A stretch of 64,000 nucleotides of DNA from Trileptium ribeirensis (Eukaryota > Nematoda > Enoplea > Enoplida > Thoracostomopsidae), in assembly GCA_030248225.1 (NCBI GenBank), contig JASANE010017561.1:21939-85938 (forward strand), written 5' to 3'. The first letter of the stretch is position 1; each line of letters opens with the position of its first letter. The notes beneath the pieces are model-generated. The model saw only the letters and a list, made by a program, of their open reading frames with translations. It ran no database searches and was not told the origin of the DNA. Both the position numbers and the translations under genes were made by a program. This document shows positions 6,684 through 64,000 of the stretch, piece after piece.

Positions 6684-6697
6684 TCCTTTTTAAGAGT
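6684..6697 (-). promoter_or_regulatory. TCTTAAAAAGGA motif upstream of ORF91
   Basis: Minus strand ACTCTTAAAAAGGA. It contains the ATPase stop codon TAA and lies about 25-28 bases before the ORF91 ATG. Confidence 0.5.
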
Positions 6698-7448: not shown

Positions 7449-7474
7449 AATTATCAGAGATTATACATGATAAA

Positions 7475-7487
7475 CCCTTTTTAAGAA
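7475..7487 (-). promoter_or_regulatory. TTCTTAAAAAGGG motif upstream of ATPase gene
   Basis: Minus strand GTTCTTAAAAAGGG ends about 28 bases before the ATPase ATG. It is the best match to the consensus TTCTTAAAAAGG and resembles a shifted TATA element. Confidence 0.55.
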
Positions 7488-7489
7488 CT

Positions 7490-7717
7490 TTGTACCCCTA
7501 TTTTGTACCACTATAGGTGTCATATGAACCTCCATGTACCCCTATTCTGTACACCTGTGGTAGCTCTATGGGTACGGATTGTACCCCTATTCTGTACCCT
7601 ACAAGTATGTTTGAACCCATTTGGTTACATTGTATACTCATATTCTGTACCCATCTAGGTGCGTTTTGTGTCCCCATGTACCCATGTTCTGCAGCTCTAC
7701 GGCTACGTTTTGTACCC
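7490..7717 (-). repeat. tgtaccc minisatellite downstream of integrase
   Basis: Irregular tandem units of roughly 50-60 bp, each containing a tgtacccctattctgtac-like core (minus strand: GGGTACAGAATAGGGGTACA). They fill the gap between the integrase stop codon and the motif preceding the ATPase gene. The first unit is continuous with the last codons of the integrase gene, so the array may have grown from its 3' end. An overlapping 81-codon minus-strand frame (7498-7743) follows the repeat and I do not regard it as a gene. Confidence 0.7.
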
Positions 7718-8776: not shown

Positions 8777-8804
8777 TGCAACTGAATGTTATAAAACAGT
8801 AGTA

Positions 8805-8816
8805 GCTTTTAAGACA
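8805..8816 (-). promoter_or_regulatory. TCTTAAAA motif upstream of integrase gene
   Basis: Minus strand TGTCTTAAAAGC, about 30 bases before the integrase ATG. A second AT-rich word (TTTTATAAC) lies between it and the start. Confidence 0.5.
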
Positions 8817-8959
8817 TTCCTGCATGTTTAACACCTTCCAGTGCGCAGGTTGTCTATATCAGCTCAGACAAAGCAACAAGGTTCGATAACATAATTTATT
8901 GAATACACATATAGATATAAAAACAACTACAACACATAATATACTACACATGAAAATAT

Positions 8960-12954: not shown

Positions 12955-12957
12955 TGT

Positions 12958-12970
12958 TTCTTTTAAGAGA
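12958..12970 (-). promoter_or_regulatory. TCTTAAAA motif upstream of polymerase gene
   Basis: Minus strand TCTCTTAAAAGAA ends about four bases before the polymerase ATG. It shares the TCTTAAAA core with five other intergenic sites of this element. Confidence 0.5.
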
Positions 12971-12974
12971 TTAT

Positions 12975-37705: not shown

Positions 37706-38335
37706 GTATTGGTCAAAAATGACTAACACTTATTATCCATCTCACGGTATCATCGACGTTATTGGCTCGTATTGGTCAAAAATGACTAACACTTATTATC
37801 CATCTCACGGTATCATCGACGTTATTGGCTCGTATTGGTCAAAAATGACTAACACTTATTATCCATCTCACGGTATCATCGACGTTATTGGCTCGTATTG
37901 GTCAAAAATGACTAACACTTATTATCCATCTCACGGTATCATCGACGTTATTGGCTCGTATTGGTCAAAAATGACTAACACTTATTATCCATCTCACGGT
38001 ATCATCGACGTTATTGGCTCGTATTGGTCAAAAATGACTAACACTTATTATCCATCTCACGGTATCATCGACGTTATTGGCTCGTATTGGTCAAAAATGA
38101 CTAACACTTATTATCCATCTCACGGTATCATCGACGTTATTGGCTCGTATTGGTCAAAAATGACTAACACTTATTATCCATCTCACGGTATCATCGACGT
38201 TATTGGCTCGTATTGGTCAAAAATGACTAACACTTATTATCCATCTCACGGTATCATCGACGTTATTGGCTCGTATTGGTCAAAAATGACTAACACTTAT
38301 TATCCATCTCACGGTATCATGGACGTTATTGGCTC
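37706..38335 (+). repeat. ten perfect 63-bp tandem repeats in an open frame
   Basis: Ten head-to-tail copies of 63 bp; nine show no difference and the last has one change (atcgac to atggac). Because 63 is divisible by three, the frame 37719-38345 stays open and would give a 208-residue protein made of a 21-residue unit beginning MTNTYYPSHGIIDV. There is no signal peptide, no splice context and no recognisable domain, so it is more likely a young minisatellite than a gene. It lies 290 bp past the stop of receptor gene A. Confidence 0.9.
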
Positions 38336-38345
38336 GGCTGTATGA

Positions 38346-44872: not shown

Positions 44873-46208
44873 GTGAGTAACCCGTGCTGACCCATAATTC
44901 ACAAATTGTGACATTAAACTATATACAGTAAACCAAATACAAATAAACGTCATTTTTCGTCATTGGGCGTGGTGCTATATATAGTCATTTCAGCTATTGA
45001 GAGCTTAAAATAAACAGGTACAATATATTACCTAGGCTATCTGTACAACATTGTACCTTATGCAGGAGGACTGGAAACACAAATATATTTATTATTTAAA
45101 TATATGTGTATAAACTGGAATTTTGATCGCAGAAAATTGAAATCTTATAAATATAATTGAGAGAGTTCTTGTGACGACGAAACATTGGAGTCTGGCCTGT
45201 TTTTGCCTGCGGCCATTATCGCTGCAGAGGTCGAGGATTCTAAACTCCAAGTGAGTCGATTCATTAAAAATCCAGGCTGTACATGCAAGCAATGAGGCTA
45301 TTTTGGAGGAGCGGAATCTCGAAAATTACTTTCGTTATACGTCTACTTAAAGACCAAAGGTGGACACAAACTTTGCTTAAGCAAACCCGGAAATACTACG
45401 GCACACGCGCTTTTAAGATCTACGAAATATCTCACCAGTAACCAGCTTGACAACAACTAAACATGATATGAAATGAACACATATATATGTTAATTAAACC
45501 ACGGTATTTCTTATTCGTAGCCTATGTATATTGATTATTTGCATGCAAATAAGTATATAGTGTACCGCTGTTGATGAAACATGAAACATCTATGGTTATA
45601 TAGCATCAGTTTCAGCTTTCTTCTTGCACGTGCTTTGTGAGGAATAAAACGGCCCGCAGCACAATGAATTCAGTTGAAATATTCGGCTCGAAGATAGTAC
45701 ATTCGGTCCACGCCAAGGCGAAAAATCTACACTCGTTCAATACTATTATTTTTATAACGGAATTTGATAAATGATTGAGACATTGTTATTTTGGCATTTG
45801 ACCGTCCTATTGCGTGATTCTGTTTTTTTGTGTAGCTTAGATCGTGCCGAAATTACTATTAATAATTATTGATTATACAATAAGCTAGTTCGTCTGTGGC
45901 GTTACATCAAATGTTACATTATGGATGGCTATAATAGAGTATTTTGCAGTAAACTTAAACTTGTTAACGAGATGCTGATAAGTCACCTTTGTGATAGAAT
46001 ATGTTTTTTTCAAATAAACACAGGTCTGCCTAGCTGCACGTAAACTACTGTGCCAGTGATAGTTTAATAATATTGTCTGTCAATCCGCACGCAACGTATT
46101 GTATCCATGGTAAAGTCAACGGCCGGTGTAGGTTCAGAATCACATAGATATAGTTATAAAATTCATGGTATAAGTTAGGGCCACAGGTTAATTTCATTGA
46201 TATTTCAG

Positions 46209-46309
46209 AGTTCTATGATTTCATGAACCCTGGTCTTTACGAAGATTTTGTTGTCGCAACTCCGCCCTATGAAGACTTCCCCGTTCATGTAAATTTTTTG
46301 GATATTAAG
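46209..46309 (+). CDS. candidate exon with Cys-loop-receptor-like N-terminal motif
   Basis: Follows acceptor attgatatttcag and precedes a gtgaaat donor. Phase 2 in, phase 0 out. The peptide FYDFMNPGLYEDF then PPYEDFPVHVNFLDIK resembles the YD-x-N/P...PVxVxxxxxxxxI pattern at the start of Cys-loop ligand-gated channels. If the donor is ignored the frame stops at 46344. It is short and unsupported by neighbours. Confidence 0.25.
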
Positions 46310-47030
46310 GTGAAATATATAAATGTTACATGGGTGAAATTATAAGCGATAAATAAAAATTGCAACGAAACCGCATTTATCTGTTTACTTGCTCAAGTCT
46401 GAAAGATTAGTAGATGAATGGCTGGCCTCTGGCATGCGACGAGCTACCCATGAAGCGAATATGCATCCATTGTAGTACCTATATCCCAAAATTCATGCAT
46501 GATCCTGTGATTTAGGTTGATTTAGAAAAATTTGCAATATAATTTATAACGCAGGAATTTGGTGTTAATTTATGCACATGCTTCGTTATCTGCGCTCGGC
46601 AAATGCCGTGGTCAATGAGTGAGAATTATGTTGAAGAGAGTCGAATTGGTCGTGTTCGGCATGCTTTAGCCCGACTGAATAACTTATTATGAACATATAA
46701 TATTCGTTTGACCGCCATTCAAACGCGTATTCATTTTGAAATAATATATCCCTCAGAAATCCGACAAGTGCACTTCAAAATAAAGGTTCATTGCTCTGTG
46801 GACGGATATTTGATTCGTTTTGAATGTTAAAAAGCGGACTATAAGTCACGCTAAGCCGAAAGATGGTCTAGGTTCAGTGGAGGTATTACAGTACAGCTTC
46901 ATGAAACGTTCAAACTTTAACGCCTTCAGTTATTCGACAACAACAAATACTATCTACTAATGATATGCCCTAAATAAACTATCTACTAATGATATGATAT
47001 AAATAATGCGTTAAGGATTCGAGCAATAAC

Positions 47031-47101
47031 TTCCGGATAGCTCAATGGCTAGTGAACTTGATTTTCGACCGAGCGTTGCGGATTCGATACCTATTCGGCG
47101 A
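47031..47101 (+). pseudogene. degenerate tRNA-like sequence
   Basis: An A-box-like tagctcaatggctag and B-box ggattcgatacc are correctly spaced, acceptor halves ttccgga and ttcggcg pair imperfectly, and the anticodon loop would read TTC. The D stem pairs badly, so a tRNA pseudogene or SINE head is more likely than a working tRNA. Confidence 0.3.
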
Positions 47102-48557
47102 CCTTTCAATTGTTAATCGGTTTTCGAAATGTAAAGTAATTCAGGAGCTAAAGTGTTAATGATTGGCTAGCTAGTAGAAAGCATAAGTAAGATTCTGATA
47201 CATCGCAACGGCTATCTAACTAGATGCTTCGTGGGGATCATTGGGTTTCCACTATTTAAGAATTGTTCTGCGACGGGTCCTATATTTAACAATGTTTACT
47301 TTAACCACTACATAATTTTTGTATAATGTTAGTACGTCGATAAGGCAATTTCGGTAAGTCCGTCAGTCTTAAGTTGCGGTTAGTTCAAAAGCATAATATA
47401 TTTCATAAAATTTGCGACAGAAAAATGATTTACTGCTGGCTTCTTCTAAATTGGAAACGTTGGAAGAACGGAAATTGTGGAATTTTTGAACACCCCGCTT
47501 CTTGCTTGTCGCAGAACTTCGTGCTCAGAAGGGGCGTTTTTAATCCACAGTCTTTGAAAAATAAACCTACATATAAATGCTTTTACCATTATATACTGAT
47601 GTATATCTGGGATAAATGATAAAATTTTCTGATGTCAGCAATCTCTTCCTGAGCTATAGCTGTTGTTGTAACAGGTCTCCGCAATAGTGAAATAACCAAG
47701 AAACGGGATAAAATTATCTTTACGGCAAAAAATTAATTTATTAATGAGCAAAAAATGTTTAACATTTTGTCGTCAAATAGAAGTTCCATGAAAAAAGGCA
47801 CTGATCTCAAGCAGTCTAGTTACTGATATATTATAAAGCCCACACTATATACAAATATTTGTAGATGTCTACTAAGTAATGGGTACAGAAACTACAAACG
47901 CCCGAAGACGCCTGTTCAAATATTAGTTGTAATTACGTACCTGGTGATGGCTAATATGATCGCACTTTTTGGTTCATCCTTCCAACCAGTTAATAACTGC
48001 GATTTTACCTGTTACAAACCGAATGGTTTTTACGTCGTCACGTTTGCGCTTACATAAGACATTGCAGCTCTCATTAGATTTAAATTGGTTAATTTTATTT
48101 AAACTCAAGTAAACACATACTACAACTACGACGAGGTAATATAGCCAGTACGGAGTGTCAAAAATTCCAAACAGTGGGGACTTTATAACTCAAAATCCTC
48201 ATAAAACGCGGCCTTTACGTTATAAAAGACCACCTTGTGAAACTTTTGTATACCATGGGCGTCTCTGCCACCATCCATTATATGGTATATTGTACACTAG
48301 AAGCACCATTAAAGATTTGAAGTTAGCAGCCGTTAACTCGCGAACTTGCGCTGTTGAACGTTAGTGAATCAACAGAGACCAAAATTACATCACAAGAAAT
48401 TATTGATATTGTGCTTGTGAGAATTATAATCAAAAATGATATATTAGCATTCCACTATCATTGAATTTGTGCATTTAAAATATTTAATTTAAATATATAA
48501 TAATAATAATGATTGAAGCAAACTGAATACTCACATGGCTCCTCCTGTTCTCGATAG

Positions 48558-48960
48558 TTTGCGTGGTGTTCATTTACGAATTGGTGGCTACATTGACCCT
48601 CCGAATGTACTGCCGTGTGCATTTAGCAGTAATTCCGCCATTTCCGCCCCAGATGCAAGTACATTCTGTTCCGCCAAAGGCACCGACGTGGAAATGCTTG
48701 ACCTCTTGGCCAGTATCCTCGGCTTTACATACACATTGTTCCTTATGCCATATGAACCATTCTCTGCAAACGGAACAATAGTTAATGTATCCCTCGATGA
48801 ATACGATCTTATGGTAAACTTGCAAAGGTACACCAAAGAAATCGCCGGGCAATTCGATTTTTCAATGCCGGTATTTTATACCCAGCTCGGGTACGTGATA
48901 CGTCAACCATCAGAAGTCATGAATTCAACGTTTTGGATTTTATATCCTTTCCGATGGCAG
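48558..48960 (+). CDS. ionotropic glutamate receptor-like gene B, S1 ligand-binding exon
   Basis: An exon of 403 bp. The acceptor is gttctcgatag with a pyrimidine-rich lead; the donor gtaaaatc at 48961 is phase 0, the phase of the M1 exon of gene A. The peptide holds the S1 half of the ligand-binding domain: RGVHLRIGGYIDPPN, GTDVEMLDLLASILGFTY, then EYDLMV, FDFSMPVFYTQLGYVI and the pre-M1 segment YPFRWQ. Known role of the family: ligand binding in a neuronal channel. The expected M1 exon is not clearly seen downstream; a weak resemblance (GTFGQ, then a hydrophobic stretch) occurs at 49097-49230 after an in-frame stop. The gene may be broken or continue beyond the Gypsy insertion at 50.9-58.4 kb. 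It is a second gene, not part of gene A, since it lies downstream of that gene's stop. Confidence 0.75.
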
Positions 48961-49949
48961 GTAAAATCACATAATTCAGTGCTGATATTGATAGTAATAT
49001 AACAGTCAAAAAGCGATCTTGTTCTAGAGCTTAGTAGAATATCTCTATCGACATTGATTTTTGTTAGGATGTGTACCATAAAGATGAACCTTATGTGTGA
49101 GCAAGCAGAGCAGGTTTGAGGGTACCTTTGGCCAATATACGTATAGTATTATTAAACATTCTCTATCATCTCTAATTGTGCTGATTACAGTAGTGAGTGT
49201 AGTGAGCATACGCAAGTATATCTCGTGTATAAGCAAAGCCAGAATGCATCAGAACGTATATCAGAAAGATTATATCTATGAAAGCAATATAAATTTGAAA
49301 TCTCCCGGGAATCTTTATACCTATTAGTCGTTAACAAATTTAACACATGGTACAATATCTTTTCCATGAATCTATTTTGCCTTATTATGTTTAAGCCCGT
49401 ACGGAAGATGTGATATTTAGACGTCGAAAAAGCTGCTATGTTAGGCCAAATGTGCAATTGAACTTAGCGTTTCCGCATATGTTCAGTAGTAACCTCTTGG
49501 CTTACTTTGAACACGTGACACTGATTGCTTTAGATTGTGAGTAGGTACTTGGCCGTTATATATTGCTATAACAATGAAATAGTAAATCATGAGTTAAAAC
49601 TAACATTGAACAGGATCTTCTAATGAAAAATGCCCATATCCGAAGAGTGCCAATTATTTTTCGTAAATTAATCTATACTTCAATATTTGTGCTGTGTATT
49701 TAACGTGTGTTATAAAACATCAATAAAAAGGCGATGCATATAAAGATCCTTCGCAAAACCTATATGCAGCGAAGCACCGATATCAGGGACCATAATTTAA
49801 ATATGCCCATTTTTGTTTCACTATTACATGTGTGCATAAGATACTCATACGATCTGGGTAAAAAATTGCCATTAATTACCGCTGGGTTTACTAATACAGG
49901 TAATAGACATCTGGTAATACCTCTAGGTAAAACCAAACATTGTTTCGAC

Positions 49950-50140
49950 AAAAATGTTATGATTGTAAGTATGATTCCTCCGGTTGCTGAACTCAAAGAT
50001 GAAAATATCCAAATGTTCCAAGCTGTGGGCTACGGCAACTGTAACCTAGAAATTATTAACATATTGCGACAGATTCTACGTCGAGCAAGACACACCATAA
50101 AACGTACTAAATTAGAAACCACTAGTTGCAAAGTTTTGCG
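49950..50140 (+). repeat. segment duplicated at 39683-39870, within an open frame
   Basis: Lies in a 146-codon plus-strand frame (49734-50174) whose product is not recognised. The similarity to 39683-39870 covers only about 180 bp. A strong donor-like gtaagtatg sits at the start of the shared part, so it may be intronic. Confidence 0.45.
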
Positions 50141-50906
50141 GAAAAGATATGTTGTTGCTGGGTTACCGCGCTAAACCAAAGTTTTGTCACATCAACAGCT
50201 ATGGCTAAGGAATGGACAGGTGGTTATATGTAATTTTTTTAACTTTTGATTGCAGATAACCAACGGCACATAGTGGTAGAAGCATTACTCTATATGTGTC
50301 TATTTCCAAAAACTGGAATAAAACAAAGCCCATTTTTAAACCAAAATCACGTAGAATTTTGTTTTTCCGTCCGCGTCATGATAACCGCCAAAGTGATGTT
50401 ACAGAATTTTTAAAGTACAGGGAGCCTGTGTTATTGCAACTGCTAGCGTTGGACATCTGCTCGATCACACCTTTAGCAAGTGAATAAGAGAGCAAAAGCT
50501 ATCGATTTTGCGTTGCTGCTGCTATAGCTTGAAAATGACGGGCGGTGTTAGGGTTAAATTTTGAAATTGCGCGCATCAATATGCCGCATATTATACAGTC
50601 GATATTTTCCTAACGTTGTCCAAACTACGGCACCGATTGATAGAACAATATTGCAGACCAAGATTTTTGTTAGTGTATGTTTGCATGCGACTATAAATTT
50701 AAGTCATCGAATCTTGACTAAATACAACTACCTTATTAAAATGATTGAGATATAGGGTAGGCACAAATTTAAAATACCACAACTTAGGGACGCCACAACT
50801 GAAAATCAAAAAACTTTTTGTTTATATTAGCTCTAAATTTGTGGACACTCAAAGAATTCTTCCCTGTTTTTGTGACGAGAGAGAATATGCTTATAGATAG
50901 AGTATA

Positions 50907-51209
50907 TATGCTAAGTAAGAACTTCTGTATATGGCACTTATTTATGATCTGCATAAGTACCAAACAATGACGAAACGTTTTAATAAACACAACATTGCTG
51001 ACAAAATGTAATGCATTTTAATGTGACAACGGTAAGCTTTTTATGAGCTGCTTCTTTTTAGCTTCAGAGTAGATTCTTAAAAAGCTGTGTAAGATGCACC
51101 AAAAATCAACAGTTCAGATATTTATATATCGAACGTGAAAATGTTCGATGCGTAGAAAAAACATTAAAAAATCAGACCAATACCTGATCAGTTCAAAAGA
51201 GACTGCACA
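50907..51209 (-). repeat. 3' LTR of the Gypsy element
   Basis: 303 bp, with about five differences from the 5' LTR, four of them transitions. It is preceded on the minus strand by the polypurine tract. Confidence 0.95.
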
Positions 51210-51222
51210 CTACCCCCTTCCT
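51210..51222 (-). other. polypurine tract
   Basis: Minus strand AGGAAGGGGGTAG directly abuts the 3' LTR, the expected place for plus-strand priming. Confidence 0.85.
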
Positions 51223-51750
51223 AAGTAACGGAGTGTCTTATATATAATTTTCGGTTTTTGTTGAATGATCATATTTCAGTCTAACTCATATATTTAAACT
51301 ATATACAATTCTTCGGTTTTTCAGAACTTGTGAACCAGGTCTTGAGTTGATATTTTCGCAATAGCATCATGAGCTGAAATTGATGTAAAACGGGAGAAAT
51401 TGCATTATCATTATGAAATAAATTATATAACATTATACACATCAACATCAAAGCAGCAACAAAACCTATAGCTTAAATTAAATTTGTACCTACATATATG
51501 ACTAAGTTGATTGTGTATTGGAATCATCAACAATGAGGTGTTTAATTTTGTGATCCCGCTCCAAATAATAGAAGCCCATCCTACGCAAAATCGTGTTTTT
51601 TAGCAGTAAATGTTTGTATAATGATAATGTAACACTGTAAACTGAAAACAACAAGAACTGAACAAGTTTTTTTTGTAACTTAACAAAATTAAAGTACTGG
51701 AAAATACATATACATTTCTTTTCAAACTTATCTGTTATACATATATATAT

Positions 51751-52830
51751 CTAACAGTTTGAATGTATGAGCTGTCTCAGCTTTTGTGTTCCCAGTGCGG
51801 ACAGGTGCAAACCATCGTTTGCAAAATAAATTCGTTCTTGAAAATGGGCTTCAGTGTGTAAAATTTGGACCGAATTCTGTTGCGACATTTTTCCAACCAC
51901 TGAGTTCAACCGTAAATTGACGTCTGTAACAGCTCGTTGTAGACGGCTGAGATCATGATATAATGTTATGGGCGGTTCGTCGCCAGGTCGAGGGAGTATT
52001 TCTAATATAATTAGCCGTGTATTAGGATATTTACGACAAAAATATTCAATGTTTTCACGGAACAGTTTGGCAACCCTAGCTGGCTTTTGTCGCATTAAAC
52101 TGCCGTCGGCATCTCTGCGGGGGTTCCCATTCTTAGCCCAGGGTTTATCTAATGACAAGTTGTTGGTCCCAGCGAAAATGAATACTTTGTTAATTCTTTC
52201 ATAAGTTGTTAGTTCTGCCAGTCTAAATATCTTTTGTAGTCTACCGCCATTCCATGAAATAGTTAAAAATTCTGGGGTGCCGATATGTTTACCTATAGAA
52301 TCACTAATGAAAAGGCAGGTGTCGGCAGTTATTCGCCCATTAATTATATCCCTTAGTCTCATTAGCAACCGTCCCATCATGTTGCAGTTGAGATAGGTAT
52401 TTTCACTCACCCACTGGGGAACTGCGTCTGAAGTTAACCCAACTCACCAATACCTATCATAAGGATTCGCCTCGACCAAAAATGAATCGCCGGTGTCTAC
52501 AAGGTGCTGGGCAAAATTGGGGTTTTGGCTAGCCTTATCGTTTAGGCATTTGAACATTACATTAACCCTTATTTCGCGCCATTTATTGACTTCCGTAGTT
52601 GGTGATTCACGCTCAACCATAGCGGAGATTTTTTTGCATTCTTTGGGGTCGCGCGTTTCAATTACTTCTTTTGCACGTTGTTTAGCGTTGAGCATGATGC
52701 ACTTGGAGTAGGCATATTGTTTTTCTGTGGTGTGAAAAACGTGCGACGCTATTGTTATAAGGAATGTTGCGAAGTTGGAGAGGAAATTGTTTGTAGGGTG
52801 CGTTGAGTAGAAGCATAATGTTCGTTTCAT
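51751..52830 (-). CDS. Gypsy ORF3: NADAR-SGNH hydrolase fusion with one in-frame stop
   Basis: 360 codons between ATG 52830 and the stop at 51751, interrupted once by TGA at 52444-52446. The first 128 residues are the NADAR N-terminal two-thirds (NNFLSNFATF, TTEKQYAYSK, LVDTGDSFLVEANPYDRYW). The frame resumes with the NADAR end (GLTSDAVPQW, then NMMGRLLMRLRD); the TGA replaces the conserved Gly after the Trp. An SGNH hydrolase follows: LFISDSIG (nucleophile Ser), WNGG, FAGTNN and NDGLHLSALG with the Asp-x-x-His pair, so all four SGNH blocks are present. Position after pol and before the polypurine tract marks it as an accessory gene, probably made from a spliced or subgenomic RNA. NADAR may reverse ADP-ribosylation and the esterase may act on lipid or acyl groups; both are inference. 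Confidence 0.85.
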
Positions 52831-52972
52831 ATTCTAAAACAAAATTAAAAGTTTTGTTAATATTTTGGTTAAAAATAGCAAACTAGTCGCACGAAGAGAG
52901 TGAAGTACTGCTGGTTTACATGCTACCTGCATCGGCCAACAGTCTCACGCCCTCGGGCGACAAGTTTCTTAA

Positions 52973-55900
52973 TCAAAAATATTGTATTGCATTTTTAGAC
53001 AAATCAAAGGTTAGCTTACGCGTCTTTCTTTGCGTAACAACGCAGCTTGTTTTTGCTTCACTCAACGCTTGTATGAAGTCCTTAGCTAGTGTATGTGCGC
53101 GTTGTAACGGTATGTGTTTGGTGGTTGTTTTAAGGTAAGGTGTAATTTTGTTTTGTGGTATAAATGCGAAGCGGTTTGTGCCAAAAAATCGTACGGGAGT
53201 ATCATTTTCACGCCTGCGCGTGTGCTTGAGAGGTGTTTGGGCTGCGTCAACAATGACAGCAGGCCAGGGAGGGTATCCAGGAAATTTTGCCAAAACAACG
53301 GTATCCTCGGGAAATTGTGGTGTTTTCGTTTCCTGGGGCGCGGAAGATGTTGGAAGATTTTGTGCAGGAGCTGCTGGTCTACTTTTTGGTTTAACTATGG
53401 AAGGCGTTGCGCGCTGCAGGTCTGATTGTAAAAATGCTGGTTTAACTCGGTCGATTGATATATTTTCTATGTGGTCTTGTATGTTTAGTGTCACGGTCTT
53501 ATCAGTACGCGTTATAACTTCATATGGACCTGAGTAGCGGCTGCTCAGCGAGGATTTCGGAGTCTGCTCTAGGATCCAAACATGAGTAGCGTTAGCTAAA
53601 TCATTAGGTACATAATGCGCAGCATGATGTTGACGCTCTGGTTTCGGAAATTTGCATACTTGCGCATAAAATTTTTCTAGAAAGTTTGCTGTTGGTGTGT
53701 TTACTTCTGGTTCGGAGGGTACAAAAAATTGCACCGGAAGCTCCATGTTTGAGCCATAAACCAGCTGTGATGGACTGTAGCCGTGTTCACTTATTGTAGA
53801 CCTAATCCCGAGAAGCACTAAAGGAAGGGCGTGGTACCAGTTGCTGTGATTGCAGCTTGCTCGAAGCGCATTTTTGAGTGTTCTATGAAAACGTTCTGTT
53901 GCACCATTTGCAGCAGGATGATATGCAGTTGTACGCTTGCGTTCTATGCCTAAGCGATGCATGAGAAGATTCCACACCGCGGATTCAAATTGGCTGCCAC
54001 GATCGGAAATTAATGTGCGTGGGACGCCGAAACGGCTTACCCATGATTGCAAAAAGGCATGTATCACTGATTCTGTGGACATGTCGGATATTGGGACTAC
54101 TTCAGTCCAATGAATGAATCTGTCAACCATTGTGACCAGATATCTGTAGCCCTTAGAAGGTGCAAGCGGGCCGACAATGTCAATGTGCACAGTGTAAAAG
54201 CGTGCAGTTGTAGGAATATTTCCGATGGGTGATTTCGTGTGTCGCCAAATTTTACTTTTTTGGCACTCTTCGCAATGCTTGGCCCAAAGGCGCACGTCTT
54301 TGCTCACGCTTGGCCAAGTATACTGGTCTTTCACCAGTCGCAATGTTGCGCGAGGATTGGGGTGAGATAGGTTGTGTACTTGAGAGAAAACTTTATAGCG
54401 AAGTGGTTGTGGGACGAAAGGCCGGAAAAGTTTATCGCAAATGACTGCGACGCCGCCTATTTGGCGCTCAACCAATGTCTGGGAGGTGTTTTTAAAAAAA
54501 GATTGCAAATCGCTATCATTGGCTTGAGCGTCTGCAATTGATTTGTCAAATTACGCGGTGACGATATTCACAGAGCGCGACAAATTATCTGCAACTATAT
54601 TTTCAGCACCAGATATGTGGTGGATAGTGCAGTTAAATTCCGAGATGTAGGAAAGCCAGCGCGATTGTTGTGGTGTAGGCGTTTTCATAGCTAGCGCGTT
54701 TATTAGTGGTTTATGATCAGTGACGATGCGAAATCGTACCCCGAGGAGCCAGTTGAAATGTTTTAGGCTCAAATAAATTGCAAGAAGCTCGCGGTCAAAA
54801 GCAGATTTGCGCACTTCTGCGTCGTTCAATTTGCGAGAGAAAAATTCAAGCGGCTGTTTGCAGTCACCTATTATTTGATGGAGGACTGCACCCACAGCTG
54901 TGCTAGAGGCATCTGTGGTTAGCTCAAGGGTTGCATTTGGATCAGGGAAAGCTAAGCAGACTGAGCTTTTCAGAGCTGATTTGAGTGTTGCAAATGCATC
55001 TAAAGCCGTCTGATCCCACGTAAGCTTAACTTGGCTTTTGATGTTAAGCCCACGTGTGAGTGCGGTTAGGGGTGTGGCAATTTTGGAAAAGTTCTCCACA
55101 AAACGGTGATAAAAACCTGCGGCACCCAAAAAACTTTTGAGCTCGTGGACTGTTGTGGGCACTGCGATTTTGTCAATCGCCGCGACTTTATCAGGAACAG
55201 GCTTAAGATCGTCCCGCGAAATGGAAATGCCAACAAAATTGACTTGTGGGCGCAAAAATTCACATTTTCTGCGTTTTAGCCTTAAATTGAACTTATTTAG
55301 GCGCTGGAAAACTTGCTCAAGATGTTGTATGTGCTCAGTTTCGTTTTTGCTAGCTATAAGAATATCGTCCATATATGCTTTTGCGAAAGGTATGTCTTGA
55401 AGCGCAGTGTCAATTAAGCGTTGGAAAGTTTGCGCTGCATTGCGAAGACCGAAAGGCATGCGTGTGTATAAGAAAAGACCAAAAGGTGTGGTGATAGCGG
55501 TTTTTGGTTGGTCCTGTTTCGCAACGGGTATTTGGTAATAAGCGCTTACGAGATCGAGCTTAGAAAACACGGTGGTACCGTGTAGCTCGTTTGTCATATC
55601 CGTTATATTTGGCATTGGGTAGCGGTCAGGTATAGTTTGCTTATTTAGTTGGCGGTAATCACCACATGGTCGCCAAGGATCTAATGGATCTGTTTTAGGA
55701 ACCATATGGAGAGGAGTTGCCCATGGCGACTCGCCACGATAAACGATGCCCTGTTTTTCCAATTTTGAAAAATGGTCTCTCGCTATTTGGAGTTTTTTTA
55801 CAAAGAGACGACGTGGTCTCGTAAATGTTGAAGGACCAACTGTCGTAATATGATGTTGAATTGGATGACAAATTTTATCACTTGGTGTGATTTCACTAAA

Positions 55901-56383
55901 AAGATGTGCGAAACGTACTAGAAGAGGCTGCACATTGATTGCATCACAATGCGCAATCTGAATTGCATTTACATGCACATTTGGTAATGTTGTGATAAGA
56001 GTGTGTTTACCACAATCAACAAAAATGTTGTGATGAGCGAGAAAATCTCGGCCCAAAATTGGTTGAGTTACGTCTCCAATTAGGAACGTCCATGTGAAAT
56101 CACGTTTAAGACAATTGATTTTGAAGGTTAAACGAGTTTGTCCATGTATTTTAATATGCGAGTCATTTGCGGCAGAAACTTTAAAAGGGGCACAATTTGG
56201 TATTTGCGTTCCTAAGTTACCCAGACGTTTAGGCAACACGCTGATGTCGCTACCCGTATCGGCTATAAAGCGCCCAACTGAGCTAGCGGCAACCAAGATA
56301 GTATTCACTCCGACGCGGGCCGCATCTCCGCCGGAGGAGAGGAGTTTTCCTGGTTGTTGTTCCAAGAACATGGTGGAGTACAT
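52973..56383 (-). CDS. Gypsy pol: protease, RT, RNase H, integrase and PWWP domain
   Basis: One frame interrupted only by a TAA at 54551-54553 between RNase H and integrase. Part 1 (54551-56383, 610 residues): protease DTGS at 42-45; RT with KLDLVSAYYQI at 275-285 and YMDD at 337-340; RNase H with TTDASS near 489-494, DRELLAIY, TDHKPL and VADNLSR. Part 2 (52973-54550): integrase with a His45-His49-Cys79-Cys82 zinc motif and catalytic Asp110, Asp169 and Glu205 (DD35E; numbering from 54508). After the integrase C-terminal fold comes a Pro-rich linker and, at 402-485, a PWWP domain: VVLAKFPGYPPWPA, VRFFGTNRFAFI, ITPY and a C-terminal helix. PWWP domains bind H3K36-methylated nucleosomes; here it probably guides integration to transcribed chromatin (inference). 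The usual Gypsy chromodomain is absent. Confidence 0.93.
53051..53308 (-). other. PWWP domain coding segment of the integrase
   Basis: Residues about 401-485 of the integrase part. The GYPPWPA signature, FFGT strand and aromatic positions (Trp415, Phe441-442) fit the methyl-lysine cage of PWWP proteins such as LEDGF. Confidence 0.85.
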
Positions 56384-57762
56384 TTGAATGCTTTAGGGCC
56401 AAAACGTTTGTGGTAAAAACATAGTGTGTCCAACCATTTTGGACGTTTTTGGTCATTTTGATCGGTGTTAGTGTTGTTGTTGTTGTTGTTGCTGTTGCTG
56501 TTACTAGTTGATGGATATTGACCATTTTTGTCGCGAGAAAAATCGCGATAGTGTGTTTGGTTGGATGTGCTTTGTGTGTTGCGATTTTGACTGCGACTAC
56601 GAAAACGTTTTATTTTTGTAGAAATAGCTTGAACTGCCTTCGTGAGTTCAGAAATTTGTTGTGTCAAGTTTGTTGTGTCAGATGATGCAGAATGCGCGGC
56701 GATTGTGTCATTATTTGTTTTGACAGATCGACAAGACTGAGGTATCTGGTCAATCATTTTATCTGCAGCTTCTGCCAACCGGTTAAGTGGTGTATCATCA
56801 GCTAACGTCGACAAAACCACTCTAATCTCGGTGGGCAGTATTTCGAAAAATCGCAATTTTACAAGGTCTTCGTTATTTGGGGCAAGATGTTTGAGATTTC
56901 TAAGAGCGGAGGACGGTTTTTGATCCCCTAGGGTCTGGTCGCTGAGCAATTTGCTCAATTTTTGCTCAGCAGTTTCGTCGAAATGTTGAATTATTTGGTT
57001 TTTTATTTGGTCGTATGTCAAAGTCACTTCAGCACCACTCTGACGAAGGGCAGAAATGGGGACTACACGTAATAAACTATTTTTTCGTACGGTTTCTGTT
57101 GAACCGGTAAGCATTTGCTCAACGGTGTCAAACCACCGACGAGTATCGGTGTCGAAAAAATCTGGCAGTTTAATTGACTTGCCAATATCATCGGCAAATG
57201 GGCTTGGGTTAACATTTGCTTCCGGAGGTGGTCTGACAGCATTAAAAAGTGCACGAAGCATAGCTTCACCGTGGGGGGCTAATTGGTCTATTAATTCAGC
57301 TTTTCGGGTTCCCGGAGCAATTTCAAATTGGGGATTGGTTTCATTTATCATGCGTAAAACAGCAGATAGGTCGGCAATAGTATATGTGTTAAAATCAATT
57401 GGGCCGGGATTCAATTCAATGTCCCCAGCTAAAATTAGAAGCCACCGAATAGATGTGCGATGTCTGGGACTCATATACAAACACACACCGAAGCATTCAT
57501 TACGTACGTATTTGTGAAAAAACAATGATTGTTTGTAAATAAAGTATGCGAACGGTCGGCTTAGTATATATGAAACATGAAAGAATGCCGACGAGTACCA
57601 AACAGATTCAGTCGGGCTTAAGTTACATGTCATGGAGTTCAGCGCACTCGATTGTAAATGTGTGCGCAACATAAAATGTAATCCTAATAGTACAAAAGTC
57701 AGTTTCATTTTGTTAAACAAATTTTGATAAACGGAATTTTGATAAACGGAATTTAGAACCAA
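56305..57762 (-). CDS. Gypsy gag with N-terminal 2A-like sequence
   Basis: 485 residues. Residues 19-32 (MKLTFVLLGLHFML) look like a signal sequence if translation starts at Met19. A 2A-like motif, LLILAGDIELNPGP at 108-121 (57400-57441), should cause ribosome skipping between Gly120 and Pro121, releasing a 120-residue leader and starting gag with Pro. The next 40 residues (YTIADLSAVL, TRKAELIDQL) resemble a SAP DNA-binding motif. A gag capsid region follows (IKLPDFFDTDTRRWFDTVE, LRNLKHLA), then an RS-rich stretch, an Asn/Thr run and a Cys/His motif LCFYHKRFGPKAFKCTPPC typical of one Gypsy lineage. The frame ends 79 bases inside pol, which is in the -1 frame, so pol is expected from frameshifting. 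Confidence 0.9.
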   Translation of the reverse strand: MVLNSVYQNSVYQNLFNKMKLTFVLLGLHFMLRTHLQSSALNSMTCNLSPTESVWYSSAFFHVSYILSRPFAYFIYKQSLFFHKYVRNECFGVCLYMSPRHRTSIRWLLILAGDIELNPGPIDFNTYTIADLSAVLRMINETNPQFEIAPGTRKAELIDQLAPHGEAMLRALFNAVRPPPEANVNPSPFADDIGKSIKLPDFFDTDTRRWFDTVEQMLTGSTETVRKNSLLRVVPISALRQSGAEVTLTYDQIKNQIIQHFDETAEQKLSKLLSDQTLGDQKPSSALRNLKHLAPNNEDLVKLRFFEILPTEIRVVLSTLADDTPLNRLAEAADKMIDQIPQSCRSVKTNNDTIAAHSASSDTTNLTQQISELTKAVQAISTKIKRFRSRSQNRNTQSTSNQTHYRDFSRDKNGQYPSTSNSNSNNNNNNTNTDQNDQKRPKWLDTLCFYHKRFGPKAFKCTPPCSWNNNQENSSPPAEMRPASE

Positions 57763-58094
57763 AAATATGCTTGTTGCTTAAAGTACGAAAATATGCGTCT
57801 GACACCCAGGTTTGTTACATTTTGATGTTGCTAGTGTATTGTAGCCTACATTAAAATATTTAGCAAAATAGCATGACTTTTGTAATCAATTCGGTTAAAA
57901 ATTCCGCGTATCCAGGATCATACTCAACTTTGTTCTTCAAATTTGACCAACCGACCAATAATGTAGTACGACCAATTCCAAATAGCTTCTTCGATATAAC
58001 TATTTCGTAAAGCCACAGTTGACGGATAAAACATCGATAATCGGTTTAAGGTCGCTAAGTTACGCTGAAGGTTGCGTATTGATTGTAGTCACAA

Positions 58095-58112
58095 TCACGT
58101 CGTAGTTCACCA
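58095..58112 (-). other. primer-binding site
   Basis: Minus strand TGGTGAACTACGACGTGA starts two bases after the 5' LTR. The leading TGG pairs with the CCA end of a primer tRNA, which I have not identified. Confidence 0.75.
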
Positions 58113-58114
58113 AA

Positions 58115-58417
58115 TATGCTAAGTAAGAACTTCTGTATATGGCACTTATTTATGATCTGCATAAGTACCAAACAATGACGAAACGTTTTAATAAACACAG
58201 CATTGCTGACAAAATGTAATGCATTTTAATGTGACAACGGTAAGCTTTTTGTGAGTTGCTTCTTTTTAGCTTCAGAGTAGATTCTTAAAAAGCTGTGTAA
58301 GATGCACCAAAAATCAACGGTTGAGATATTTATATATCGAACGTGAAAATGTTCGATGCGTAGAAAAAACATTAAAAAATCAGACCAATACCTGATCAGT
58401 TCAAAAGAGACTGCACA
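58115..58417 (-). repeat. 5' LTR of the Gypsy element
   Basis: 303 bp, almost identical to 50907-51209. On the minus strand it begins TGTGCAGTCTC and ends TTAGCATA. A TATATAAATA box lies inside. Confidence 0.95.
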
Positions 58418-58422
58418 GTATA

Positions 58423-60030
58423 TGAACCTGCCAAGCTGCATCGAATGTCTTGACGAAGTCGATAGTTATAAGAATCATCGACCACTTTATCACCTAGATA
58501 TATTTGGACCAAATAGACAGCAGTTGGGTTGCGCTAAGCCGTTCAAACAACAATTCAGGCGCTTGTCAAGAAACATGGTAGTCTGCAGATACCAGTCGAG
58601 TGCTCCGAAAACAATGATTCCCGTTAGCTTGCCATAAGTAGAAATTGGGGCAGTTGAGATTGTATGATACATCGCCCTTTGATAATGGAGTGGGCGAAGC
58701 CACTAATCTGGCAACATACTAATAACAAGGTTTTGCTGGAACTAGGGTTCCGTAGCATTCCGTTATCGAGAAAAGAAACATTTCGAAACCTCATAATGAA
58801 CGGCACTGTTTGTGTCTGTCAGTAGGCATGATTTATATGAGGCGTAAAATGTAAATTATCAAGTTTACAGTTGGCTGATTGAGAAGGATTTTTCCTCATC
58901 TATCATAAATAGCCGTGAAAATCCTTCCCAAGTATATTTATATTCACACTCTTTTACAAATACCGTTATCGTTTTTGATATCAGCATAACCTCAGAAATA
59001 GTACAATATCGTTGTTGACGTATTCATAAATTTATAACAAACAATTCCCGCAATATCAAAATTCCATTTGGGAACTACCAGCCGTGCATGTTATTATAAA
59101 TTGTTCTTTGTATAGTTGCATTGCATTGTTTCCTAAGTTGTAGTTTATGTCACAGAAGGCGTCTTATATAGATATGGATGGTTACAGAGCCTAAGTACTA
59201 TAAATTATACGGTGATAGACGTACATTACGAACATAATTTTAAATAGACGCAATTTATATTAGCCCATAAATTGTGCACTCAGTAATAAATCTAGGTCAA
59301 ATGTCAGTCTAAATCAACTTTGCTTATTTGGAAGCCTAATAAGCCGTAATGACAATAGCCAAGAAATTGACTTAGAATGCAATTCATTGAACTCGAAAAC
59401 AGGCACATCCACACTCTTTCCTATAAGTTAAACTTAAGCTGTTGACTCATTTAAGAATCACAGATTATAAAAAGTGTTTAATCATAAAGTATGATTTTGC
59501 AGTTTTACAAAAAATTTACAGAACTGATAACCTAGCTAATGCTTACGAATTTAATGTATATTTCATAAACTATATTTATGAAATTTTGTACGGTAGAACA
59601 TCAATTTATGTGTGAAGTTAGAAACTTGTTTCCGAACGTCGGTAGAATTGGATGCTTTAGTAGTTAGGCATACGCAGATTTAAACATTTATGCATATCTT
59701 CATTATCTATGGAAACAGTTTGAAGCCATTCTCTTTTCCTGCAAAAAACTCCAATTTTGCTTTTATGGTGTATATATAACCTGGTTAGGAGCATTCCGGT
59801 TAGACTCACATTTTTGCAGTAATTATGACAAGTAGATAAGAAATGGGGGTTTTGCCCCCTCCCCCTCCCAGATGGGTGGGTGCAGGCTTACCCCCTCCCT
59901 GAGGTTGGGGCAGCCCTACCCCCTCCCCCTCCCTGGAGGAGGGGTAGGGGCATAGATCATTGAGGAGTGGTTGAGGCTTGGCTCGTTGAGGAGGGTGTTT
60001 AGGAGTGACTCAGTGAGGGTGGTTTTAGTT
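58423..60030. other. no confident gene; C-rich block near the end
   Basis: Short frames only. A block at 59846-60030 alternates ccccctccccctccc with ggaggagggg words and gttgagga-like repeats; it could form G-quadruplexes and forms the 3' flank of the gene at 60031-60903. Confidence 0.5.
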
Positions 60031-60903
60031 TTATCCTTCCTCATCACACTTTACTGATGTGCTTGTCTGTAAGCTGGGAATGTGCAAAACTCTGATTTGT
60101 TTCCAAATGTTTTGATCTTGTTCTATACACGCGCCTGGTTTAATAAGCCTACGGCGATTTACTTACCTCTTCCAGCATCGGTACGCTGTATATAATTAAC
60201 ATACGTCGGCCACTTACCTCTGGTCTTTGCCTTACCCGTTTTTATTCCTTTCTGCATCTAAATTATTTAAAAAGAGCCAAGTCAAAACATGGCTCTGAAA
60301 AGGTTACTTACCTTTAGTTCCGGTATTTCCAATATGGTGCACGGTAGTAGCGTCGTCTGGTCGCACTGTCTGGAGATTTTTGCTGCGATGATGGCGAGGA
60401 CTTCTTCGAAGTTGCAGGGTGGTTGAAAGGCGGTGGCTCCACCGAAGGGTTGTTTGTGGTTCACCACGTATGACCGGTGGCAACGATGGCGTGCTCAACA
60501 GTGGGGGCGTCGCCTGTTTACTTGATGTCGATTGTTGTGGTGTGATGATACACGACGGTGACGGTGGTTCGGGGCTTAGTGTTCTTAATTCTTGCTTAAT
60601 ACTTTTAATTTTGTTGAGCACAGTTTCCGGTGATGGGGTAGGTTTTTTAGTACGTACTACTTTTTTCGGACTGTGGCCTTTCAAACAAAACTTGCCCAAA
60701 TTTCGGTGTTTGGCTTTCCGTTTATGTTTAAGCCCCTCTGCTTTTCTATCCCAATTTTGAACCCTTTTTCTTCGAATCACTTTCCGCAGAATAAAACCGA
60801 CACCCCCTCGTGCGACTTTCCTTATTTTTCTATTACTGTTATTACTATTATTTTTTATACTGTCACTGTTACTGTTGCTGTTGTTATCACTTTTATCCTT
60901 CAT
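60031..60903 (-). CDS. multi-exon gene for a basic Ser/Pro/Asn-rich protein
   Basis: Exon 1 (60903-60312) opens at ATG, encodes about 197 residues and ends at a perfect donor GTAAGTAA. The peptide has an Asn/Ser run, then a basic region (KVIRRKRVQNW, KHKRKAKHRN) and a Ser/Pro-rich tail (SPKKVV, PSPETV, LSPEPPSPS), so it is probably nuclear and disordered. A consistent continuation is exon 2 at 60257-60236 (22 bp), exon 3 at 60185-60167 (19 bp) and exon 4 at 60066-60031 ending in TAA. Acceptors are aatttag, atatacag and agcttacag; introns are 54, 50 and about 100 bp, and phases agree. An alternative donor at 60218 would lengthen exon 2 but run into a stop. The family is not recognised. Confidence 0.5.
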
Positions 60904-60966
60904 TTATTGGAGTCACGTATAAGTTCTACCAAAGTAACTTCTAAACGAACCAACTTAAGCTGTTAG

Positions 60967-63900
60967 CATAATGAATAATCTTTATCACAACCAATAATTT
61001 TAATAACCGTTGGGTTTGTATCCTAGGTAATAGTAAACATTAATTATTACTCTGCTGCACGGCTTCGAAGTCATCTCAGTGAATTATCAACGACTACCTT
61101 TGAGATTGAGACAATTTACACAATGTATGGTCAGCTAACCAACGCAACTACAGCTGGCAATTCACAATTCAAAATTTTTTCGTTACATTTGGCTTGCTAC
61201 GTCAAATTAAATTAGCTAACTGCGCTGAGCACCTTTTATATGAACAACGCATGAATCAGTACACCTCGCTGGAAACACAACGGTGAAGACGAAGCATCTA
61301 GTCACAACGAAATTCATGCACCTAATTTGCTGATTCATATATCGCTAAAGAATACAAGACGTCTTTATCACAAGGCTAGTCATGATTCGAAAGCCGCAAT
61401 GTTTGGAAGATAAATTTCGATACGTGTTATTCTAATAATTTGTGAAACATGAAGTTTGCATAAAGCTTAATTCTCACTGTTCATAGTTTCGCTACTAGGA
61501 AAAACGCATTACACTCATCGGAAATTAAACAGTTTCTGTACGACATCAGGTTGGTATATATCCAATAAAGTTCTTACTGCTAGCTTTACATGTTTCAGTT
61601 AGGTGTACTTGATTAAAATTATTGCAACATCTTACCCCTATTAACTAAAATTAGCTCCATATTTTAGCCGTAGTACTCAGCAGACATCATAGTTAAATAT
61701 GTAAAAGATTTTGTAAAATATTCCTACTCTATACACAAATTATTCCCAACTTACGTTGGGTCTTAGTGGCCGTATTTCTATGAAATGGAATAAAATTGTC
61801 ATTTTTGTGACTGTCATAACCCATTAACGGCTGGATGGATTTTGATAAACTTTTTTATTAGAAGTATCTTGGACTCCATAGAATTCATCCAATTTCTACC
61901 CTTCAGTTGGAGTCAAAGTTTTAGGTCCTCGTCTTCACCTCGTCTTGGACTCGAAGGTTTTTTGGGTTTTTTGTATTGAATTTTAAGTTTTTTGATAAAT
62001 AACATAGATAATGTTCTGTTTAATTTGTTTTGTTTTAGTTTATTTTGTTTAATCCCGAAATTTTGATGTTTATTCTTTTCCAACACCATGCCCAACGGTA
62101 TTTGGTATCTCGCTGAACGAGGCGGTTCTGAATTGGGCAGGTTAACCCTTTATTTTTAGTTCAAGTTCCAAAACCAAAATAAATGTTGTAGATCAATTTT
62201 TTAACTGGCGGCTATAATTTCAGAGGTAATGCAAATATATACCATTGTGCATCTTTTATATAACTGCTGTTAAAAGTCTGGCACTTTTTTTAAGTACAAC
62301 GCATTGGTTGATCCTAAACGATATCTATAAATGCTCAGCTCGGTAACATCCTAACCATTTCAAGCTACACGCATACACAAAAACGCTGCGCACAAAGCAC
62401 ACGCAGAAATAGTAAAATGCCAAATTATAGAAACAATTTGAGCAGTACTTTATGGGTCACTATAAATTCCGGGTGTCACAAAGTCTCTTGCCATGTACGT
62501 AATTCTCAACCACAGAACGATGAATATACAAAGCTGTGAAGGTATATACGTACTGAGACGTTGCATCTAACATTAGAAATGCATAACACATCTATGCGTT
62601 AAAATATTAATTAATCTGTGGTGAAATATAGTTTAAAAATATAACGTCTTGACAATGTAAATTTACTAGTATTACACCGAACATATATATCAAAAATGCT
62701 GATTACATGTTTGTGGGTTTCGAAATTCATAGATCTGCCGACTTAAAGTGATTAACGATAATTGTACCCCACAGTGTAGGTTTATCAAACATTGTTCATG
62801 TTGCGCTTTGAAAAATCCTAGGGTAAATGGAGAATCTATTTTATCAAAAATATTTGACGTTTAACGGTGCATGAAATAATGAAAACATTAAGATAAACAT
62901 GGCAAATATGTAAATACTGATAACATCTGCGTTACGGAAATTAATTAATAAAACTTGTGAAGTCTTATGAAAGTTTGTGATTATATCAGAAATATCTGTG
63001 AATACTAGTTTCACATATCAGGTATATTTAGCGAGTCACATATACGGCAGACACAAGCAGCACTTTGTAGTAAAAATATGTTTGGAATTTATGCGGCTGT
63101 TCGATCGACATAAAAGAGTTGGAATGTAAGTAGTTTTGCTCTGCTAACAGATTAAGTCAACTTGGGGGAGGGGAGGGGTTGCTGGGATTGGGTTGGGGCA
63201 CGACCCTCGGTAGCCCACCGTGGCGACGCCCCTGATTATTTAACTACTTAACAATGTAATGTAACATTTCAGGCTGTATATGAATACCCCTGCGTGCGTT
63301 AACATGTGCCGTATACAATGATAATACGTGTACACTTACTTTTGAGATCTGCATTTGACTATCGGACATTGGTCCTACTTAGCGATTTGACAACATGTAT
63401 AAAAAGATTTTACATATATACAATGAATATGTAGTGCAACCTGTAACCAGCAGTTCGAATCAAATCGTTGTACTTGCATGGTACACCACGAATTTAAAAG
63501 TAAAATAAATAAAAAAGTCAGCGTAGAGCTATCAAGCAAACTAATTTTGAAACACGTAGTTTAATGTCAAAAGGAAAATAACGACAGGTGGTCAGTGTCA
63601 TAATTTTACAGCACGTTCAGCATGGTGCGACATTCTAGGGACGACCCGTACTAGACACTGTAATTTCTGGTCGGTACCAGGTATTACCACTTGCTCTCAT
63701 GTCAACGATAAATAATTTGCAGATGCATATAGTTTGCGACAAATACAGCACCAACGACCTCACGGTTCCCAGCAACAGGTTTCAGTACTGTATGAGAAGT
63801 GTCAGGTAGTACCAGTCTAACCTGAATGATGACATGACTCCACGCGGTTTAATTTTTTCCTGTGCATTGAGCGGTACCGGAGAAATATTACATGCTGCCA

Positions 63901-64000
63901 TGTTCACATATCGCGACAGTACTTATACACAAGGTTTTAAGAATGCAACATAATGTTAATTTTTTAATACTAAAACTAAATGCAAGCAGTTATTGGGATG
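60967..64000. other. no gene seen
   Basis: AT-rich sequence with no frame above 60 codons and no recognisable repeat, apart from a GC-rich patch at 63160-63235. Confidence 0.5.

What the first reader, a model, noticed from the sequence alone, without database searches (positions are those of the whole stretch)
53051..53308. PWWP domain fused to a Gypsy integrase
Seen: after the DD35E core and integrase C-terminal fold, the same frame encodes a complete PWWP domain (GYPPWPA, FFGT, TPY, C-terminal helix) at the position where chromoviruses carry a chromodomain. Known: lentiviral integrases borrow the host PWWP protein LEDGF to reach H3K36-methylated gene bodies. Inference: this element has built the tether into its own integrase. 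I do not know of a described lineage with this fusion.
Basis: partly seen in the sequence, partly recalled or inferred. Interest (0 to 1): 0.88.

Follow-up and report, generated by a model that had tools for sequence, protein, structure and literature searches.

The report
Retrotransposon integrase with built-in PWWP reader
A family of jumping genes in an unnamed eukaryote carries, fused to the enzyme that inserts it into DNA, the same type of histone-reading domain that HIV has to borrow from its host to find active genes, so it may choose its insertion sites by itself.

Summary
Residues 403-487 of the 511-aa integrase frame match Pfam PWWP at E=2.1e-17. The frame lies in an LTR element of about 7.5 kb (50907-58417) with 98% identical LTRs. 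PWWP is matched in 39 of 41 aligned integrases (window, 34 other genomic frames, 6 database proteins), down to 46% integrase identity. In a tree of integrase cores the PWWP rows form one clade, support 97/89. All four LEDGF methyl-lysine cage positions are aromatic in 31 of 31 untruncated in-genome domains, though not in every database member. The domain's model (pLDDT 90.8) matches HRP-2, LEDGF, DNMT3 and NSD3 PWWPs. The Gag CHCC box points to the CsRn1 clade, whose described members lack chromodomains. A NADAR-SGNH third ORF follows. Best explanation: a self-tethered integrase aimed at H3K36-methylated nucleosomes. Binding and insertion-site preference are untested. My literature searches listed no such fusion; chromodomain and Tudor fusions to Gypsy integrases are known. 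New variant of a known kind.

The parts
58115..58417 (-). 5' LTR (303 bp)
   Evidence: 98% identical to the other LTR; ends located
50907..51209 (-). 3' LTR (303 bp)
58418..58422 (.). target-site duplication GTATA (or GTAT if the LTR is taken one base longer)
   Evidence: identical to 50902-50906
50902..50906 (.). target-site duplication, other copy
58094..58112 (-). primer-binding site, TGGTGAACTACGACGTGAT; resembles the complement of a tRNA-Trp 3' end (tRNA sequence recalled, not fetched)
   Evidence: sequence
56305..57762 (-). gag ORF as listed (true start not determined)
   Evidence: CHCC box
57400..57423 (-). 2A-like motif DIELNPGP in the early part of the gag frame
   Evidence: meaning of the motif recalled, not tested
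56368..56421 (-). Gag CHCC box CFYHKRFGPKAFKCTPPC (CX2HX9CX3C)
   Evidence: signature of the CsRn1 clade per PMC2582038
54551..56383 (-). pol, first part: protease (DTGS), reverse transcriptase (YMDD), RNase H; overlaps the gag frame in another frame (-1)
   Evidence: RT and RNase H by Pfam; DTGS and YMDD motifs and frames
52973..54508 (-). integrase-PWWP frame (same frame as pol; separated from it in this copy by one in-frame stop)
54251..54415 (-). integrase zinc-binding H2C2 domain
   Evidence: Pfam PF17921 E=9.6e-16
53915..54196 (-). integrase catalytic core (rve), DD35E
   Evidence: Pfam PF00665 E=1e-14; residues D110, D169, E205
53048..53302 (-). PWWP domain, residues 403-487; cage residues F409, Y412, W415, F441
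   Evidence: Pfam PF00855 E=2.1e-17; model pLDDT 90.8
53006..53020 (-). C-terminal RVxF-like motif RKLTF, recurrent in the clade
   Evidence: 29 of 37 members against 4.5 expected from shuffled tails
52444..52830 (-). third ORF, first half: NADAR domain
   Evidence: Pfam PF08719 E=4.7e-20; one in-frame stop follows in this copy
51751..52410 (-). third ORF, second half: SGNH/GDSL hydrolase
   Evidence: Pfam PF00657 E=6.7e-07; in one open frame with NADAR in L002
51213..51222 (-). polypurine tract AGGAAGGGGG
   Evidence: sequence

Best explanation
This is an LTR retrotransposon of the Ty3/gypsy group with CsRn1-clade features, belonging to a clade that acquired a PWWP domain, most simply once, at the C-terminus of its integrase and kept it. 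The integrase core does strand transfer. Beyond a fast-evolving linker of about 40 residues, the PWWP most likely grips methylated H3K36 with its aromatic cage and nucleosomal DNA with its basic face, so that the intasome is held at H3K36-methylated chromatin. It would thus do in one polypeptide what lentiviral integrase plus host LEDGF do together. Shown: the fusion, its conservation across copies, its cage residues, its predicted fold, its constraint, and one clade on the tree. Inferred: methyl-lysine binding, H3K36 as the mark, and preference for active gene bodies.
Against: No binding or insertion-site data. PWWP domains also bind DNA, and some read other marks (recalled). The cage is not perfect in the database members: 3 of 6 have L at the F44 position, 3 of 6 have H or S at the M15 position, 2 of 6 have H or M at the Y18 position, and one of the six, P0122, has no Pfam PWWP match although it aligns over the region. 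The PWWP is less constrained than the integrase core (median pN/pS 0.55 against 0.35; linker 0.90). In L006 versus L010 the PWWP ratio (0.34) is not below the linker's (0.26, silent sites near saturation), and the young pair L017-L018 has 3 replacement and 0 silent changes in the PWWP.
Confidence: 0.63

Rival explanations
1. The PWWP is a methyl-independent nucleosome or DNA clamp that raises affinity for target DNA without choosing a chromatin type.
For: Basic net charge in 37 of 37 members. PWWP domains bind DNA as well as H3K36me (PMC3663649; PMC6877644). A PWWP solved with ssDNA (Shuguo) is among the fold matches. The cage is imperfect in some database members.
Against: A DNA clamp needs no cage, yet all four cage positions stay aromatic in 31 of 31 untruncated in-genome domains. 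W and F are also core residues, so the positions matching M15 and Y18 are the telling ones.
Confidence: 0.18
2. The PWWP reads a methyl mark other than gene-body H3K36me3, such as intergenic H3K36me2 or H4K20me, and steers insertion to other chromatin.
For: Among the best matches are NSD3 and DNMT3 PWWPs, which are linked to H3K36me2 as well as me3. A yeast PWWP reading H4K20me is recalled.
Against: The sequence neighbours are mainly HDGF/LEDGF-type domains.
Confidence: 0.12
3. The PWWP acts on the host rather than on target choice, for instance by masking H3K36me on the element's own chromatin or by displacing host PWWP proteins.
For: The element carries other accessory domains (NADAR, SGNH).
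Against: In the aligned members the domain is an extension of integrase, not a free protein.
Confidence: 0.05
4. Chance or pseudogene fusion in one copy.
For: The window copy has one in-frame stop in pol and one in its third ORF.
Against: PWWP in 39 of 41 members, long open frames in many copies, constraint on the domain.
Confidence: 0.01

Closest known systems
CsRn1 clade of Ty3/gypsy elements (CsRn1, PwRn1, AgCR; PMC2582038)
   Same: Gag CHCC box CX2HX9CX3C; integrase GPY; gag and pol overlapping with a -1 shift, as in some members; PBS resembling tRNA-Trp (recalled)
   Different: That paper found neither chromodomain nor Env in PwRn1 and the AgCRs; here integrase carries a PWWP and a NADAR-SGNH third ORF follows pol
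Chromoviruses (Ty3/gypsy with integrase chromodomain)
   Same: A histone-methylation reader is fused C-terminal to integrase
Ectocarpus Gypsy families with chromodomain, and Gypsy-10_Ec32 with a Tudor domain (PMC12477816)
   Same: Independent capture of a chromatin-reader domain by Gypsy elements; one lineage there also carries a NADAR domain
   Different: Chromodomain or Tudor, not PWWP ('PWWP' occurs 0 times in the main text); [quoted passage not shown] brown algal host (passages read)
HIV-1 integrase with LEDGF/p75
   Same: A PWWP of the HDGF/LEDGF type is brought to the intasome (PMC8149907, passages)
   Different: In lentiviruses the PWWP is on a host protein bound through its IBD; here it is part of integrase
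Bdelloid rotifer LTR elements with a GDSL ORF3 (PMC5408684)
   Same: An SGNH/GDSL hydrolase as a third ORF
   Different: The main text has no PWWP and no NADAR, and states that no chromodomain was found

Membership tests
Ty3/gypsy LTR retrotransposon | LTR pair with target-site duplication and pol order PR-RT-RH-IN | tested here: met
   LTRs and TSD; DTGS, RT, RNase H, then H2C2 and rve
CsRn1 clade | Gag CHCC signature CX2HX9CX3C | tested here: met
   CFYHKRFGPKAFKCTPPC; definition from PMC2582038. Tested on the window copy only
CsRn1 clade | tRNA-Trp primer-binding site | tested here: inconclusive
   TGGTGAACTACGACGTGAT resembles the tRNA-Trp complement, which I recalled and did not fetch
CsRn1 clade | RT/RH/IN phylogenetic placement with CsRn1 and Kabuki | not tested
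   no named CsRn1 sequence was fetched
Chromovirus | chromodomain at the integrase C-terminus | tested here: not met
   the Pfam scan of the window frame gives PWWP and no Chromo hit; none of the 11 families matched by the 41 members is Chromo
PWWP domain (Pfam PF00855) | profile match over the curated cut-off | tested here: met
   63.8 bits against 25.6
PWWP domain (Pfam PF00855) | beta-barrel plus C-terminal helix | tested here: met
H3K36me-reading PWWP (HDGF/LEDGF type) | aromatic cage M15, Y18, W21, F44 (LEDGF numbering) | tested here: met
   F/Y409, Y/F412, W415, F441 in 31 of 31 untruncated in-genome domains, window included; exceptions among the 6 database proteins
H3K36me-reading PWWP (HDGF/LEDGF type) | methylation-dependent nucleosome binding | not testable with these tools
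   needs a binding assay

The most novel reading that the evidence does not exclude
An old and diverse clade of retrotransposons carries its own LEDGF: a PWWP fused to integrase that steers insertion into H3K36-methylated, transcribed genes, the opposite strategy to the heterochromatin-seeking chromoviruses. Beyond the PWWP lies a recurrent C-terminal RVxF-like phosphatase-docking motif, and a NADAR-SGNH third protein follows.
Probability: 0.5. Interest if true: 0.9.

Novelty: new variant of a known kind. Interest (0 to 1): 0.8.

Why it matters
Lentiviruses reach active genes by borrowing a host PWWP protein, while chromoviruses carry a heterochromatin reader. A natural integrase-PWWP fusion would fill the missing corner: a transposable element that encodes its own reader for the active-gene mark. 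It offers a natural test of whether a tether alone sets integration sites, a natural counterpart of the artificial tether chimeras used to retarget retroviral vectors, and a question about how a genome tolerates elements aimed at gene bodies.

Tried and rejected
Chance or single-copy fusion: rejected. Chromodomain misread as PWWP: rejected. More members among viral contigs or bacterial and archaeal genome contigs with the PWWP alignment A3: 18 and 25 pattern matches, none confirmed. Third protein search with the PWWP region of a 711-aa L002 piece: no hit among 85 candidates, although P0001, P0002 and P0005 fall in its length range, so that search was insensitive. Gene-body test: not done. Frames of 38 aa or more on the + strand around the insertion (45000-50900, 58418-64000) were listed but not searched; one exon with a weak ligand-binding hit, 48517-48999, lies 1.9 kb away, which is no evidence for targeting. 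Whole-integrase model: mean pLDDT 69.7, pTM 0.34, used only to see that the integrase part matches foamy virus and Ty3 integrases. Genome-wide NADAR count: not completed. A family absent from the VIA-align list says nothing; LEDGF is not among its 50 rows but is Foldseek rank 7. RVxF-like motif: my first tail definition gave 24 of 37 against 3.6 expected; I moved the start ten residues back after seeing cut motifs and got 29 of 37 against 4.5.

Full report
What is there. On the minus strand, window 50907-58417 is an LTR retrotransposon: LTRs of 303 bp at 58115-58417 and 50907-51209 that are 98% identical, flanked by GTATA (or GTAT). A primer-binding site follows the 5' LTR and a polypurine tract precedes the 3' LTR. 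Inside are gag (57762-56305), protease-RT-RNase H (56383-54551), the integrase frame (54508-52973) and a third ORF made of a NADAR half (52830-52444) and an SGNH/GDSL half (52410-51751). Pol is in the -1 frame relative to gag. Pol and integrase share a frame, with one in-frame stop between them in this copy; the third ORF has one in-frame stop too. A near copy, L002 (99% identical integrase), is open in both places: pol-integrase frame 1139 aa, NADAR-SGNH 360 aa.

It is a family trait. The integrase frame was sought in the window's own assembly (687 Mb, 20,229 contigs): 87 match rows from 84 scored of 5681 candidates, identity from 100% to 44% (43% for one fragment), many with open frames above 1100 aa and up to 1214. 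I examined 50 loci (L001-L030; L041-L060); 36 of 50 have no stop in the integrase segment. I aligned the window, 34 of these (L001, the window itself, and L007 were left out) and 6 database proteins: A2, 41 rows. PWWP is matched at E<=0.01 in 39 of 41. The two without are L047, whose frame breaks before the domain, and P0122; L024 and L058, whose frames break inside the domain, match below the curated cut-off. For residue counts I dropped L023, L024, L047 and L058, leaving 37 rows, 31 of them in-genome with the window. Separately, a genome search with the PWWP family gave 777 candidates, of which 150 were scored; all 150 pass the cut-off, and 49 lie within 1.5 kb of one of 84 integrase places. 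Both lists are capped, so how many of the other 101 lie in integrase frames is not known; of three that I looked at, L065 has the Gypsy third ORF beside it, while L063 and L069 belong to a different element-like gene.

Outside the genome. A search of 5.8 billion proteins gave 590 hits, of which the best 120 are listed. Four of these 120 carry PWWP by the precomputed domains (P0001, P0002, P0005, P0101). A search with residues 300-500 gave 4 hits, adding P0121 (PWWP) and P0122 (no Pfam match). These six come from unnamed sources. Their integrases differ from the window's by about half (45-51% identity), so the fusion is old or has spread widely.

One clade. A tree of the integrase core (84 rows, 333 columns; 29 PWWP rows) puts all PWWP rows plus P0003 in one clade, support 97/89. 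P0003's frame ends before the PWWP position. Leaving P0003 uncounted, one change of state suffices; counting it as lacking PWWP, two. The sister row P0004 has no PWWP and a tail of 50 aa. Dropped before the tree: P0101, P0121, P0122 (too few core columns), nine in-genome rows that were near-identical or truncated, and 61 of 116 listed proteins without PWWP (the lower-ranked ones). The 470 unlisted hits were not seen.

Constraint. For window versus L005, dN/dS is 0.09 in integrase, 0.23 in PWWP and 0.65 in the linker. For L006 versus L010 it is 0.12, 0.34 and 0.26, the linker's silent sites being near saturation. Over all pairs the median pN/pS is 0.35, 0.55 and 0.90 (pairs are not independent). 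Against: in some pairs the PWWP silent changes are saturated, and in the young pair L017-L018 it has 3 replacement and 0 silent changes.

The cage. In LEDGF the methyl-lysine cage is M15, Y18, W21, F44, and alanine at M15 or Y18 strongly reduces specificity for H3K36me3 nucleosomes (PMC3663649, passages and abstract). The matching window residues are F409, Y412, W415, F441 (alignment to LEDGF). In 31 of 31 untruncated in-genome domains they are F/Y, Y/F, W, F. Over all 37 rows they are F31 Y3 H1 S2, Y26 F9 H1 M1, W37, F34 L3; the departures are all in the six database proteins. Net charge of the domain is +3 to +11 in 37 of 37. In flies the PWWP of JASPer tethers a kinase to H3K36me3 nucleosomes and gene bodies (PMC6877644, passages). 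So the chemistry needed for H3K36me reading is present; the binding is inferred.

Beyond the PWWP. The frame ends in a short recurrent motif of RVxF type, [KR]x(0-1)[VIL]xF, found in 29 of 37 members against 4.5 expected from shuffled tails (24 against 3.6 with a shorter tail; members are related, so this overstates independence). RVxF motifs dock protein phosphatase 1 (recalled). I offer this as a lead only.

Third ORF. By tblastn with the window halves and the L048 frame, 39 of 50 integrase loci have a similar third ORF downstream; the 11 without are L023, L042, L043, L045, L046, L052, L054, L055, L057, L058 and L060, and L052's locus ends 510 bp after integrase. NADAR and GDSL were matched by Pfam in the three copies that I tested: window, L002, L048. 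A genome search with the SGNH half gave 127 match rows, many of them (by eye, not counted) just downstream of an integrase place. In some divergent copies the frame opens without an ATG (L048), which suggests a spliced message.

Copies of this subfamily. The LTR is found at 8 places: pairs in the window and on C16487, one on C16256 near an integrase match, and three others. It is a small, young subfamily in a large clade.

Known relatives. The Gag box CX2HX9CX3C is the CsRn1-clade signature; PwRn1 and the AgCR elements have tRNA-Trp primer sites and neither chromodomain nor Env (PMC2582038, passages). Ectocarpus Gypsy families carry chromodomains outside the chromoviruses and in one case a Tudor domain, called there the first reported in a transposable element; one lineage carries NADAR in Pol (PMC12477816, passages). 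Bdelloid LTR elements carry GDSL ORF3s (PMC5408684, abstract and passages). Five searches joined PWWP with retrotransposon, integrase and gypsy (3 papers); LTR retrotransposon (22, 20 listed); Ty3, chromodomain and integrase, any three (128, 15 listed); transposon, integrase and fusion (7); and gypsy (11). From the titles and abstract starts none reports a PWWP-integrase fusion. Only open-licence papers are held; other papers and Repbase were not searched.

Verdict. A real, conserved and, as far as these searches go, undescribed fusion of a PWWP to a Gypsy integrase. The main gap is direct evidence for H3K36me binding and for insertion-site preference.

Noticed in passing
window 4758-13014 (-): A Maverick/Polinton-like cluster: an integrase with its own chromodomain (8788-7721; rve 4.3e-13, Chromo 6.4e-11), a weak poxvirus A32-like hit (7460-6693), an endonuclease VII hit in a 1050-aa frame (12112-8963), C2H2 zinc fingers, and a NADAR protein (5809-5273, E=5.9e-39). 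The element type is my inference.
   Followed up: partly
L063:1-1956 (-) and L069:1399-1848, 2500-3144 (+): Another element-like gene family in the same genome carries a PWWP near its N-terminus; in L063 it follows a 2A-like GDIEPNPGP leader. So PWWP domains may have been captured by mobile genes more than once here.
   Followed up: partly
window 57400-57423 (-): 2A-like motif DIELNPGP at codon 114 of the listed gag frame, 17 codons after an in-frame methionine.
   Followed up: no
L048:1594-2550 and other divergent copies (L044, L049): NADAR-SGNH frames share an AQLxYFG or AQIRYFG start; in L048 and L044 it comes right after a stop with no ATG, suggesting a splice acceptor.
   Followed up: no
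window 53006-53020 (-) and the same place in relatives: Recurrent C-terminal RVxF-like motif after the PWWP, 29 of 37 members.
   Followed up: partly
window 48517-48999 (+): Exon resembling an ionotropic receptor (by eye; weak ligand-binding hit PF00497, E=3.4e-4, below its cut-off), 1.9 kb from the insertion.
   Followed up: partly
window 37707-38342 (+): Tandem repeat that is open over 212 codons (repeating IDVIGSYWSKMTNTYYPSHG).
   Followed up: no
G000, PWWP family search: 150 scored of 777 candidates: The genome holds very many PWWP matches; 49 of the 150 scored lie by a listed integrase place. Both lists are capped, so the share outside Gypsy integrases is unknown.
   Followed up: partly
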